Source of the DNA: Halomonas sp. 'Soap Lake #6'
GTDB taxonomy: Bacteria > Pseudomonadota > Gammaproteobacteria > Pseudomonadales > Halomonadaceae
Reading direction: 5' to 3'
DNA: 64,000 bases
Assembly (NCBI RefSeq): GCF_003031405.1
Contig: NZ_CP020469.1
Coordinates: forward strand, 4,154,001 to 4,218,000
The notes under the pieces were generated by a model. The model had not been told where the DNA came from, searched no databases, and saw nothing but the letters and a program-made list of their open reading frames with translations. Each line of letters opens with the position of its first letter. Positions within the stretch are counted from its first letter, which is position 1. Of this stretch, positions 1,447 to 52,368 are shown one piece after another. The translations under genes and the position numbers were made by a program.

Positions 1447-1791
1447 AATGTATCCCAACGTCGGTGAGTGACTAATCTCAAAACGCTGTTAAGGATACAC
1501 GTCGCTCGGCGGTCTGTCCGCCTCCACCGTTTAGCGCCAGCAACCCAACATCGCTCACTTAAACAAGTTGACAACAGCAGTGTTAACTTTTAGCATCGCG
1601 CATGCTTTATATAGGCGTTATTTTTATAAGCCATGTTTTTAAAAGCTACGTTTTTAAAAGCTATGTTTTTATAGACCATGCTTTTATAGAAAATTGCTAA
1701 ATATGCCTTTAAAAAGCATTACACCAAACCGTCTAAATGCATCAGATTGGCGGTTCTTCTTCACAAATTAATAAGGTTTTGAGAGCAACCC
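1447..1791. other. Intergenic region upstream of uppP and mgtE
   Basis: No gene was recognised here. It holds the upstream region of uppP (reverse) and probably the promoter of the mgtE transcript (forward). The part from about 1600 to 1740 is AT-rich and carries the tandem repeat annotated separately. Confidence 0.6.
1630..1690. repeat. Four imperfect ~15 bp tandem repeats upstream of the mgtE leader
   Basis: The units GCCATGTTTTTAAAA (1630), GCTACGTTTTTAAAA (1645), GCTATGTTTTTATAGA (1660) and CCATGCTTTTATAGA (1676) follow head to tail. The periodic T-tracts suggest bent DNA or regulator half-sites, but no known operator was recognised. It sits about 100 bp before the possible leader peptide gene. 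Confidence 0.65.
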
Positions 1792-48358: not shown

Positions 48359-48360
48359 AT

Positions 48361-49082: not shown

Positions 49083-49880
49083 CTATTTAGTTCGTAGCTG
49101 TTGATCTAGTACTGAAAGCGCGTGAAGCGTAATAGCGATTTTTCTTCCGTCACTGCCAAAGCGCTGGAAAGGGAATCGAGTAAGGCGCGTAAGGCGTGGC
49201 AGTGTATCAAGAAATCGTTCGCGAACTTCAGGCGTTGCCTGATGCAGGCCACGCAACAGCGCGGGAGTCAAACGCTCGCGATGCATTTCACGCTTACTGA
49301 GTTTGCCATACAGTGAAAAAATAAAGCAGTGCCAGTCGCGTACCATGCAGTCCGTCAGCTCATGATACTCCCCTGGATCGGTTTCAAAATCGATGAACAC
49401 CACTTCTTCTTGGCGTACCAGAATATTGCGAGCGAACGCTTCACTAAGATAGCACTGCCGTGCATGTACATCATTAAGCGCCTGGGTGCCCAAGGCCAGG
49501 TAATGATCAATTTCCTCTACACTTTGCGCTGCAAGTAATTTATCAAGCAGCGTTTGGGATGGCTGTCCATTGTGACCAGCATCGGCTAGTAGTAGTGCCT
49601 CTGGGGCTTCAGCCAATATTGTGGGCACGACTACGCCAGCGGCCGAAAGGGCTTTTATCCGGGCAGACTCCTGAGCAATGCTTTGCTCGCCGCCTAGGTT
49701 TGGGACGGGTTTGAGCGCCTCAATACGCAACCATTTCGCTAATAGAGTAAGCGGTAGATACGCAAGGCGAGAATTACGCTTTGCGGCTTTTTTAAGCCAC
49801 ACCTTTTGTCCATCATGTGTGTATGACGCTATATTTGCTTGTTGCTGGGGGAGGGTGTCTAAAAGGAAATTTTCGTACAT
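49083..49880 (-). CDS. Kinase-like protein (LPS-kinase / BUD32-like), function unassigned
   Basis: 265 aa with a degenerate protein-kinase-like fold: candidate ATP Lys in VWLKKAAKRN, hinge-like EALLLADAG, and a catalytic-loop-like FARNILVRQEEVVFIDFETDP where N and the D of FIDFE would bind metal. The usual HxD is not seen. It lies just before gmhB, so it may phosphorylate a lipid A/core sugar, but this is context only. Start ATG 49880 with GGAG upstream; the longer frame to 49913 lacks a ribosome site. Confidence 0.75.
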   Translation of the reverse strand: MYENFLLDTLPQQQANIASYTHDGQKVWLKKAAKRNSRLAYLPLTLLAKWLRIEALKPVPNLGGEQSIAQESARIKALSAAGVVVPTILAEAPEALLLADAGHNGQPSQTLLDKLLAAQSVEEIDHYLALGTQALNDVHARQCYLSEAFARNILVRQEEVVFIDFETDPGEYHELTDCMVRDWHCFIFSLYGKLSKREMHRERLTPALLRGLHQATPEVRERFLDTLPRLTRLTRFPFQRFGSDGRKIAITLHALSVLDQQLRTK

Positions 49881-49973
49881 GGGTCGTCTCCATGGCAAAG
49901 CAGAAAGCCTCACGCGTTTGCCAGGTAATGGACGCGCTGATTCGCTTTAAGGTTTCACTAATCTTACCTGCAT

Positions 49974-49987
49974 GTTTCACGTGAAAC
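49974..49987. promoter_or_regulatory. parS: parS site 5 (abuts the hairpin array)
   Basis: Perfect GTTTCACGTGAAAC, ending at the base before the first A-run of the tandem hairpin repeats. Confidence 0.95.
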
Positions 49988-50216
49988 AAAAAAACGCCGG
50001 GAGCGTTTTTCAACGTCGTGCAACGACGGCCCTGAAAGGGTGGCTGCCATGGATGGCAGCCATAAAAAAACGCCGGGAGCGTTTTTCAACGTCGTGCAAC
50101 GACGGCCCTGAAAGGGTGGCTGCCTGGGATGGGTAGCCATAAAAAAACGCCGGGGGCGTTTTTCAACGTCGTGCAGCGACGGCCCTGAAAGGGTGGCTGC
50201 CAGGGATGGCAGCCAT
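49988..50216. repeat. Three tandem copies of a 76-77 bp multi-hairpin unit
   Basis: Units start at 49988, 50064 and 50141. Each has four potential hairpins: AACGC/GCGTT with A and T runs on both sides (a bidirectional terminator), CGTCG/CGACG, CCCT/AGGG and GGCTGCC/GGCAGCC. The few differences (for example CGGGA to CGGGG, GCAAC to GCAGC, CATGG to CAGGG) fall in loops, and in unit 2 the last stem keeps a G-U pair. No ORF of note. The element lies downstream of glyS and upstream of the kinase-like gene. No known repeat family was recognised. Confidence 0.9.
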
Positions 50217-50220
50217 AAAA

Positions 50221-50245
50221 AACCGGCACTGTAGCAGTGCCGGTT
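50221..50245 (-). terminator. Terminator of glyQS
   Basis: AACCGGCACTG and CAGTGCCGGTT form an 11 bp stem with a three-base loop; on the reverse strand six T follow. It is 56 bp past the glyS stop and precedes the tandem hairpin array. Confidence 0.93.
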
Positions 50246-50301
50246 GAGAGGGCGTTGTTAAATACGCCAATGAAGTTGCTATTAGCAATAAGCTAAAACA
50301 A

Positions 50302-52368
50302 CTACTGGGGTAGCTGAGAAATATCAGCCACTTCTAGGAACAGCGCTTGAAGACTGGCAAGCAAGGCAAGACGATTACGACGAACTGCTTCGTCATCTGA
50401 CATCACCATCACTTGGTCAAAGAAGGCATCGACTGGCTCGCGCAGGGTCGCTAGTACATCCAGCGCCTGCTGATAATCACCCGCTGCGAATAACGGCGTC
50501 ACCTGCTGCTGGCTGGTTGCTACAGCGTTAAACAGCGTCTGCTCAGCCTGCTCTTGTAGCAAGCTTTGGTCAACCTGGGTGTTGCCATCATGCTCCTGCT
50601 TACTGAGAATGTTAGAAACACGTTTGTTGGCAGCGGCCAACGCAGTTGCTTCTTCACGCTGGGCAAAGGCCTTAACAGCACGCAAGCGACGAGCGAAATC
50701 CAATGGCTTGGTGACCGGGCGTGCGCGAACCGCGAGATACATCTCTGCACTAATACCCTCATCCTGCCCCCAGGCACGGAAGCGGTCTAGCATGTAGGTT
50801 AGCACGTCCTCAACCAACCCTTCGGCTTTGGGTAGGCCTTGGTGCTGTTCCGCCGCTACGTTAAGCAGTTCGCGCAGGTCCAGATTAAGTTCGCCTTTGA
50901 CCAGAATATTCAGCACACCGATGGAAGCACGACGGAGGGCGAAGGGGTCTTTCGCGCCGGTGGGGCGTTGGCCGATACCGAAGATGCCCACCAGTGTGTC
51001 TAATCGGTCTGCTAATGCCAGCGCTTGGCCGGTCAGACTTTGGGGGATGGCGTCGCTAGCAAAGCGGGGTAGGTACTGCTCTTCTAACGCCTGGGCAACC
51101 TCGGCAGGCTCGCCATCCTGCTCAGCGTAGTAGCGCCCCATGATGCCCTGTAGCTCAGGGAATTCGAGCACCATCTCAGTGACGAGGTCACATTTAGCTA
51201 ACGCAACGGCGCGCTGGGCGTGAGCCACGTCACCGTTGATATGCTCGGCAATAAAAGTAGCAATGGCCGTACTGCGACGTGCTTTATCCGCGAGGGTACC
51301 GAGCTGCTGCTGAAATACCACGCTTTCCAGCTGTGGAATGCGCGAGGCTAAGGTGCGTTTGCGATCTGTATCGTAGAAGAAGGCCGCATCCGCTAAGCGT
51401 GGGCGAATGACCTTTTCGTTGCCAGAAATCACCTGTTCAGGGTCTTGGCTCTCGATATTTGAGATGGTGATAAACAGCGGCTTCAGCTTGCCTTGATCAT
51501 CTAGCAAGTGGAAGTATTTCTGGTTCGCCTTCATGGAAGAGATCAGGCACTCTGCCGGAACTTCCAGGAAGCGTTCGTCAAAGCTGCCTGTCAGTGCTAC
51601 TGGCCACTCGACCAAACCACTGACTTCAACCAGCAGATCTTCGTCAATTACTGCGTTTGCTTCCAGCACTTCAGCTTCGGCAAGTACTTGCTCACGAATA
51701 CGTTCACGGCGTTGCTGACGGTCGGCCAACACATAGGCGTTTTCCAGCGTGGCGAGATAGTCGTCGGCATGTTCCAGTTGTATTGCATCCGGCGCATGGA
51801 AACGGTGGCCGTAGGTTGTACGACTAGCTTGAAGGCCTAGCGCCTCGGCAGCAATCACATTGCTACCGTAGAGGGCTACTAGCCAGTGAACCGGCCGGGA
51901 AAACTCAACCCGGGACGCACCCCAGCGCATATTTTTCGGTACGGGAAGGGACTGCAGCGTTTTGCGCAGCATCTCCGGCAGTAGCGCATGAACGCTCTCG
52001 CCTGGCTGCTGTTCGCGATAGCCCAGCCAAGTACCCTTGTCGGTTTCCAGATGAATAAGCTCATCTACGCTGACGCCGCAAGAGCGGGCGAAACCTTCAG
52101 CGGCTTTGGATGGCACACCGTCTTTAAACGCAGCGGCCAAAGCAGGGCCACGGCGCTCAACTTCGCGGTCGGGTTGCTTATCGGCAAGCCCAGTGACCTG
52201 CACTGCAAGGCGACGAGGCGAGGCGTAAGCGGTCACTGCCTGGAACGGGATGTCTGCTTCCTTTAGGCCTTTTTCAATGCCGTCCGCGAAAGCATCTGAA
52301 AGTGCATCCAGTGCGGAAGGCGGTAACTCTTCAGTGCCCAGTTCTAATAAAAGCGTCTCAACAGCCAT
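50302..52368 (-). CDS. glyS: Glycine-tRNA ligase beta subunit
   Basis: 688 aa beta subunit of the alpha2beta2 bacterial glycyl-tRNA synthetase, starting ETLLLELGTEELPPSALDAL and ending with a DALR-type anticodon region. Length matches E. coli (689). It shares one base with the glyQ stop (coupled). Confidence 0.97.
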   Translation of the reverse strand: MAVETLLLELGTEELPPSALDALSDAFADGIEKGLKEADIPFQAVTAYASPRRLAVQVTGLADKQPDREVERRGPALAAAFKDGVPSKAAEGFARSCGVSVDELIHLETDKGTWLGYREQQPGESVHALLPEMLRKTLQSLPVPKNMRWGASRVEFSRPVHWLVALYGSNVIAAEALGLQASRTTYGHRFHAPDAIQLEHADDYLATLENAYVLADRQQRRERIREQVLAEAEVLEANAVIDEDLLVEVSGLVEWPVALTGSFDERFLEVPAECLISSMKANQKYFHLLDDQGKLKPLFITISNIESQDPEQVISGNEKVIRPRLADAAFFYDTDRKRTLASRIPQLESVVFQQQLGTLADKARRSTAIATFIAEHINGDVAHAQRAVALAKCDLVTEMVLEFPELQGIMGRYYAEQDGEPAEVAQALEEQYLPRFASDAIPQSLTGQALALADRLDTLVGIFGIGQRPTGAKDPFALRRASIGVLNILVKGELNLDLRELLNVAAEQHQGLPKAEGLVEDVLTYMLDRFRAWGQDEGISAEMYLAVRARPVTKPLDFARRLRAVKAFAQREEATALAAANKRVSNILSKQEHDGNTQVDQSLLQEQAEQTLFNAVATSQQQVTPLFAAGDYQQALDVLATLREPVDAFFDQVMVMSDDEAVRRNRLALLASLQALFLEVADISQLPQ

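What the first reader, a model, noticed from the sequence alone, without database searches (positions are those of the whole stretch)
49988..50216. Triple tandem multi-hairpin unit with structure-preserving changes, abutting a parS site
Three head-to-tail 76-77 bp copies each carry four hairpins including a bidirectional terminator. Substitutions between copies sit in loops or keep a G-U pair, which suggests that structure is selected. It follows the glyQS terminator and touches a perfect parS. Possible roles: transcription insulator protecting a parS region, tandem small RNAs, or a mobile repeat. I know of no described family matching it.
Basis: partly seen in the sequence, partly recalled or inferred. 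Interest (0 to 1): 0.75.

Follow-up and report, generated by a model that had tools for sequence, protein, structure and literature searches.

The report
Tandem CsrA-type hairpin repeats behind terminator
Three copies of a four-hairpin unit sit just behind the glyS gene; the unit belongs to an old, widespread bacterial repeat family that includes a small E. coli RNA known to bind the global regulator CsrA, and its place beside a chromosome-segregation site looks accidental.

Summary
In detail: three 76-77 bp units at 49988-50222, each folding into four hairpins. The array is the only one found in its genome, but a covariance model from 36 Halomonadaceae units finds relatives in 87 of 275 family genomes and 120 of 369 class genomes. 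It also finds the spacer between the rrnB terminators of E. coli (73 bits, not in the training set): the sRNA RrB, which binds CsrA through GGA motifs (PMC8144298). Stems change by paired substitutions, while GGA caps both outer hairpins in 151 of 178 distinct units. In Halomonadaceae and Pseudomonas-rich samples units often sit directly behind intrinsic terminators; elsewhere many lie near tRNAs. parS is present in 30 of 30 orthologous loci read, a recognisable array in 4, so the parS contact looks incidental. Most likely: a terminator-parked tandem variant of an RrB-type family whose + strand RNA could titrate CsrA. Expression and CsrA binding here are untested; gene orientation and the lack of strand-biased wobble pairs count against it.

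The parts
49988..50222 (+). whole tandem array, three units; GGA-capped RNA would be read on the + strand
49988..50069 (-). unit 1 (model R1 match, 96.0 bits)
50064..50146 (-). unit 2 (88.6 bits)
   Evidence: genome coordinates 4204064-4204146
50141..50222 (-). unit 3 (97.9 bits)
49990..50010 (+). hairpin D' of unit 1 (A-run/T-run stem, GGA cap); copies at 50066-50086 and 50143-50163 (the last capped GGG, no GGA)
50014..50028 (+). hairpin C' of unit 1; copies at 50090-50104 and 50167-50181
50029..50041 (+). hairpin B' of unit 1; copies at 50105-50117 and 50182-50194
50042..50061 (+). hairpin A' of unit 1 (GGA cap); copies at 50118-50138 and 50195-50214
50221..50245 (-). glyS intrinsic terminator, on whose T-run the array abuts
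49973..49988 (.). perfect parS, neighbour, judged independent of the array
50302..52368 (-). glyS (glycyl-tRNA synthetase beta subunit), upstream of the array on the - strand
49083..49913 (-). 276-aa ORF beyond parS (264 aa from the start used; no Pfam match)

Best explanation
The array is a terminator-parked, tandemly amplified branch of an old proteobacterial family of four-hairpin elements whose studied member is the E. coli sRNA RrB. Inferred: the conserved work of the unit is to present GGA stem-loops that bind CsrA/RsmA when the GGA strand (+ here) is transcribed, so the three units (five of six GGA caps intact) could act as a small CsrA titrator. Inferred: the array arose by insertion behind the glyS terminator and later recombination between units. 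Read in the - direction, glyS read-through would meet weak extra terminator-like hairpins, a by-product. parS is an independent neighbour.
For: Model built without the E. coli sequence finds the rrnB T1-T2 spacer at 73 bits, E 3.6e-21; that stretch lies between the two copies of the 18-bp 5S-end repeat, 168 bases start to start, as PMC8144298 describes for rrB, and folds alike. In that paper RrB binds CsrA in vitro and replacing three GGA by UUU removes the shift in the tested range. GGA in both caps: 75 of 92 Halomonadaceae and 76 of 86 class-level distinct units; in B and C loops 1 to 10. Covariation score 0.512 against 0.134 shuffled and at most 0.099 slid, 19 of 21 pairs with double changes; also within two orthologous sets. 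Sub-threshold Rfam hits of RsmW and rsmX on the GGA strand of L003, L004, L030 and L045. CsrA is encoded in the own genome. Terminator junction: 60 of 84 against 80 of 808 T-rich control positions.
Against: No transcript is known. Both neighbouring genes read the other strand; the only + strand promoter-like site near is weak and not above chance (49806-49835; none in 49850-50320). G-U and A-C cells in stems are about equal (24 to 20; 7 to 11 after leaving out one loop-closing U-G pair), so no strand is favoured family-wide. 12 of 120 class genomes with the element show no csrA match, against 44 of 249 without it, p 0.063. At this locus relatives look decayed by eye. In PMC8144298 the 19 tRNA-operon TLRs score below 0.01 for CsrA binding by prediction, and RrB phenotypes are modest and contradictory. 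The cap count is biased because the model itself rewards the consensus caps. One rsmX sub-threshold hit (L018) lies mostly outside the unit on the other strand.
Confidence: 0.5

Rival explanations
1. Selfish or passive repeat: a formerly mobile palindromic element that lands behind T-runs of terminators, where it does little harm. Stems stay perfect because template switching at the DNA level corrects one arm to the other, and caps are kept because a mobilising enzyme needs them.
For: Pair changes are nearly wobble-free and not strand-biased. Dispersed copies behind unrelated terminators, 33 locus clusters. Copy number differs by whole units and sites can be empty: 6 of 18 congeners have no element at one locus (by eye). 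Some copies sit inside a larger repeat with terminal inverted repeats (L023, L024, L027; by eye).
Against: No candidate mobiliser: Y1 transposase absent from the own genome and from 9 of the 11 family genomes with at least 10 listed matches. Orthologues are closer than paralogues in 40 of 45 comparisons, so copies are mostly old and inherited. No match in phage or plasmid collections. Caps keep the motif known to bind CsrA.
Confidence: 0.3
2. Transcription insulator: a chain of back-up terminators that stops read-through from glyS (and in the opposite direction) before the next promoter.
For: Each unit ends in an A-run/T-run hairpin; arrays follow terminators.
Against: The unit hairpin has few G-C pairs and is not called by the terminator scan, while the glyS terminator already looks strong. 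Terminators do not need conserved GGA caps or the A, B and C hairpins. The E. coli member is transcribed between two separate terminators (PMC8144298). Terminator junctions are rare class-wide, 10 of 77.
Confidence: 0.15
3. A parS-linked element, for example a boundary or roadblock for ParB spreading.
For: The array touches a perfect parS.
Against: Three other perfect parS sites in the window have no array. parS is in 30 of 30 orthologous loci, a scoring array in 4. Other arrays in the family follow varied terminators.
Confidence: 0.02
4. A chance local duplication without family or function.
For: Only one place in the own genome.
Against: Relatives in 87 of 275 family genomes and 120 of 369 class genomes, own included.
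Confidence: 0.01

Closest known systems
RrA, RrB, RrF sRNAs of E. coli (between the dual terminators of rrnA, rrnB, rrnD; PMC8144298)
   Different: RrB is a single copy in an rRNA operon, bounded by a repeat of the 5S end, with the GGA strand in the sense of transcription; here three tandem units, no rRNA or tRNA near, GGA strand opposite to both neighbouring genes. The paper reports conservation only within Enterobacteriales.
tRNA-linked repeats (TLR) such as RttR of the tyrT operon (Rfam RtT)
   Same: Order of hairpins similar by eye; R1 hits the tyrT region weakly (12.7 bits); tRNA-linked relatives in other genera give sub-threshold RtT hits (35.1 and 33.7 bits, gathering 45).
   Different: Defining tRNA/rRNA setting and end repeat not met here.
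CsrB / RsmX / RsmW type CsrA-titrating sRNAs
   Same: Several GGA-capped hairpins; sub-threshold RsmW and rsmX hits on relatives (25-35 bits, gathering 52-56).
   Different: No dedicated promoter or transcript shown; dispersed and tandem units.
REP/BIME and other palindromic repeats; E. coli BoxC; TRIP1
   Same: Intergenic, palindromic, at times tandem, near 3' ends of genes.
   Different: BoxC is an intrastrand-triplex motif (PMC4666352, passages read). The three K-12 TRIP1 regions give no R1 hit at E up to 1. No Y1 transposase match in the own genome.

Membership tests
RrA/B/F-type element (core) | homologous four-hairpin core | tested here: met
   R1, trained without it, finds the rrnB spacer at 73 bits, E 3.6e-21
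   five of six caps in the array; 151 of 178 distinct units with both
RrA/B/F-type element (core) | made as RNA and binds CsrA | not testable with these tools
   shown for RrB in PMC8144298, not for this array
tRNA-linked repeat (TLR) | lies in a tRNA or rRNA operon | tested here: not met
   no tRNA in the window, no Rfam match at gathering score in the window
[quoted passage not shown]
   no tRNA/rRNA to match; no flanking direct repeat of that size in 49900-50300 apart from the units
CsrB/Rsm sRNA | reaches an Rfam family's gathering score | tested here: not met
   none in the window; relatives only below threshold
CsrB/Rsm sRNA | own promoter and stable transcript | tested here: inconclusive
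   one weak + promoter-like site 49806-49835, total found no more than near chance; none in 49850-50320; transcript not testable
intrinsic terminator (each unit) | G-C rich stem followed by a T-run | tested here: inconclusive
   A-run/T-run hairpin present but 3-4 G-C pairs and not called by the scan
REP moved by a Y1 (RAYT-like) transposase | Y1 transposase in the genome | tested here: not met
   no PF01797 match at E 0.001 in the own genome

The most novel reading that the evidence does not exclude
A proteobacteria-wide, dispersed CsrA-binding RNA module exists that is carried behind terminators and beside tRNAs and rRNAs and expands by whole tandem units, so that a cell's capacity to buffer CsrA is an easily evolving copy-number trait; the glyS array is one such sponge, fed by + strand transcription not yet seen.
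Probability: 0.25. Interest if true: 0.8.

Novelty: new variant of a known kind. Interest (0 to 1): 0.58.

Why it matters
It ties an unannotated Halomonadaceae repeat to the puzzling spacer between the rrnB terminators, a stretch that PMC8144298 says is widely used in cloning and expression plasmids, and shows that this core reaches far beyond Enterobacteriales: 101 of 271 sampled genera of the class, with GGA caps kept. No Rfam 15 family reached its gathering score in the window. If the RNA is made, dispersed and tandem CsrA sites behind terminators would be an overlooked layer of post-transcriptional control. If not, it is a clear case of a palindromic repeat that parks behind terminators.

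Tried and rejected
parS function: rejected. BoxC identity of the E. coli copy: my first recall, dropped on reading passages of PMC4666352. TRIP1 as a relative: no model hit. Y1 transposase as mobiliser: not supported. Strand-specific wobble pairs as proof of the selected strand: no bias. csrA co-occurrence: weak (p 0.063; the 2x2 table was tallied by hand from the lists). Neighbour orientation on the D side: 46 co-directional, 33 opposing, 2 without an ORF, of 81; the rule is crude, and on the A side it gave 53 and 28 although terminators point one way, so I use neither. Terminator junction at class level: 10 of 77, like the background, so that seat is not general. Plasmid and phage collections: no match. 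Papers: searches listed none that I recognised as describing the Halomonadaceae or Pseudomonas form; search 104 for short sequence strings returned nothing at all and may not reach sequences in figures; only open-licence papers are held. Rows dropped before counts: 14 of the 108 hits (13 below 26 bits, one partial of 41.7 bits). Overlapping middle units are not returned by that search, so tandem units are under-counted. Large genome searches score few candidates per genome (17, 12), so copy numbers are minimum values. Genome tallies include the own genome; that also includes G235, whose hit is the E. coli-like rrnB stretch.

Full report
What is there. Three head-to-tail copies of a 76-77 bp unit lie at 49988-50222 between glyS and a 276-aa ORF, both on the minus strand. 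Read on the + strand each unit is D'-C'-B'-A': an A-run/T-run hairpin capped CGGGA, a CGTCG..CGACG hairpin, a small hairpin, and a long hairpin capped with GGA. On both strands the units fold better than nearly all shuffles (0 of 200 as good in five folds, 2 of 200 in the sixth). Five of the six D' and A' caps hold GGA; D' of unit 3 has GGG. The hairpin changes between copies stay paired by G-U on the + strand and weaken the - strand fold, but these are only a handful of events. The D' hairpin has few G-C pairs and is not called by the terminator scan; the glyS terminator beside it is.

Not chance, not alone. DNA search finds no second place in the 4.8 Mb genome, but 27 of 275 family genomes, own included, have DNA-level matches. 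I aligned 36 units from these, leaving out L021 (E. coli rrnB-like), L023, L024 and L027 (copies inside a larger repeat), and built model R1. In the own genome it finds the three units (97.9, 96.0, 88.6 bits); the next match has 16.2 bits, E 0.115. It finds matches in 87 of 275 family genomes, 10 of 24 genera; 120 of 369 class genomes, 101 of 271 genera; and 50 of 299 genomes of a phylum sample, of which I count 31 outside the class at lower scores, mostly one family. A pattern scan of named genomes stopped at its limit with 120 stretches; the 80 listed are mainly Pseudomonas, with Stutzerimonas, Halopseudomonas, Luteimonas, Salinicola, Alkalilimnicola and others.

The known relative. L021 looked to me like the rrnB T1-T2 region (recalled). 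The same stretch of E. coli MG1655 (L031:339-417) scores 73 bits, E 3.6e-21, and folds alike. It lies between two copies of the 5S-end repeat, 168 bases start to start; PMC8144298 gives 18 bp and a spacing of 150 for rrB. From that paper I read the abstract, the Introduction, two Results sections, part 1 of the Discussion and some passages. RrB binds CsrA and Hfq in vitro; changing three of five GGA to UUU removes the CsrA shift in the tested range; deletion and overexpression both give modest effects; rrA/B/F are counted among 22 tRNA-linked repeats (TLR) of K-12; the other 19 TLRs get low predicted CsrA scores; conservation is reported for 31 species of Enterobacteriales. A BLAST search finds the E. 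coli element in 3914 of 5426 E. coli genomes. No Rfam family reaches its gathering score in the window; below threshold, RsmW or rsmX hit the GGA strand of L003, L004, L030 and L045, one rsmX hit lies mostly outside the unit of L018, and RtT hits two tRNA-linked relatives.

What is conserved. On 86 distinct class-level units 95.4% of cells pair, 19 of 21 pairs have changes on both sides, and the covariation score is 0.512 against 0.134 shuffled and at most 0.099 for slid partners. The alignment was made by the model and leans towards the structure. Within two sets of orthologous loci the double-change cells are 18 and 21 against 6.4 and 6.1 shuffled; two of five measures do not exceed shuffles (pairs with double changes, pair types). 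Meanwhile both caps hold GGA in 75 of 92 Halomonadaceae and 76 of 86 class units; B and C loops in 1 to 10, with the caveat that the model rewards consensus caps. Pair changes are nearly wobble-free and show no strand preference (24 G-U to 20 A-C; 7 to 11; one loop-closing U-G pair left out by hand). That weakens the claim that one RNA strand is selected and leaves room for DNA-level arm correction.

Where units sit. For 84 Halomonadaceae arrays from 80 fetched loci and the window, 60 A-side junctions have a terminator-like hairpin; controls: 80 of 808 T-rich and 197 of 1680 random positions. Of the other 24, seven follow another unit's D hairpin by eye. In 33 locus clusters, 19 have the hairpin and 29 a T-run in at least half of their members. 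In 80 of the 120 named stretches it is 36 of 88 against 250 of 1444 T-rich and 182 of 1760 random. Across the wider class it is 10 of 77, while 21 of 60 fetched loci hold a tRNA or tmRNA; by hand, in 17 of these 21 the GGA strand is the tRNA strand, one is mixed, three are not. So the terminator seat is a habit of some lineages, and there the GGA strand runs against the terminated gene.

History. Of 82 genus genomes 35 match the ORF next to parS; I read the 30 loci returned, own included. parS is in 30 of 30. Units score in four: own, G246 (one at 89.5 bits plus a degraded one), G222 and G224. G242, G248, G272, G265 and G201 hold what look by eye like relics; in seven others parS stands directly on the terminator T-run (by eye). 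At a locus behind a ribosomal-protein gene (rpsT, by eye) in 18 congeneric genomes, the terminator is kept in all 18, with full units in 7, only a partial A hairpin in 5 and no element in 6 (by eye). Orthologues are closer than paralogues in 40 of 45 comparisons. Y1 transposase does not follow copy number; no plasmid or phage match.

Judgement. Kinship with the RrB core is strong (about 0.9). That this array titrates CsrA in its host is open (about 0.35): both neighbours read the other strand, the only near + promoter-like site is weak (49806-49835), and csrA presence is only weakly associated (12 of 120 against 44 of 249 lack it, p 0.063). The own genome does encode CsrA. It should not be filed as a TLR: the tRNA/rRNA setting and the end repeat were tested and not met.

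Noticed in passing
window 45170, 45800, 48360, 49973 (and 48344 with two mismatches): Four perfect parS sites near recF/gyrB/glyS, the first two inside the recF ORF, and a degenerate one directly beside that at 48360.
   Followed up: partly
L074, L075, L078 (G219, G227, G234): Relatives carry two perfect parS between glyS and the ORF, one standing directly on the glyS terminator T-run.
   Followed up: no
L021 (G235, 1494-1572): One Halomonadaceae genome holds a stretch that matches the E. coli rrnB T1-T2 region, perhaps an engineered strain or contamination.
   Followed up: no
L023, L024, L027: Copies of the unit sit inside a larger repeat whose ends share ggaarcactgcataaatgcct-like sequence, perhaps a MITE (by eye).
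   Followed up: no
L047, L048, L051, L053: In other genera units sit in a partial repeat of tRNA-Ser 3' sequence, split in the T-loop, as in TLRs (by eye).
   Followed up: partly
L110 and orthologues (11 loci): At one locus kept across two genera the D hairpin and its T-run stand directly before a GGAG and start codon of the next gene (pth by eye).
   Followed up: partly
window 1621-1688: A 15-bp tandem repeat, 4.5 copies.
   Followed up: no
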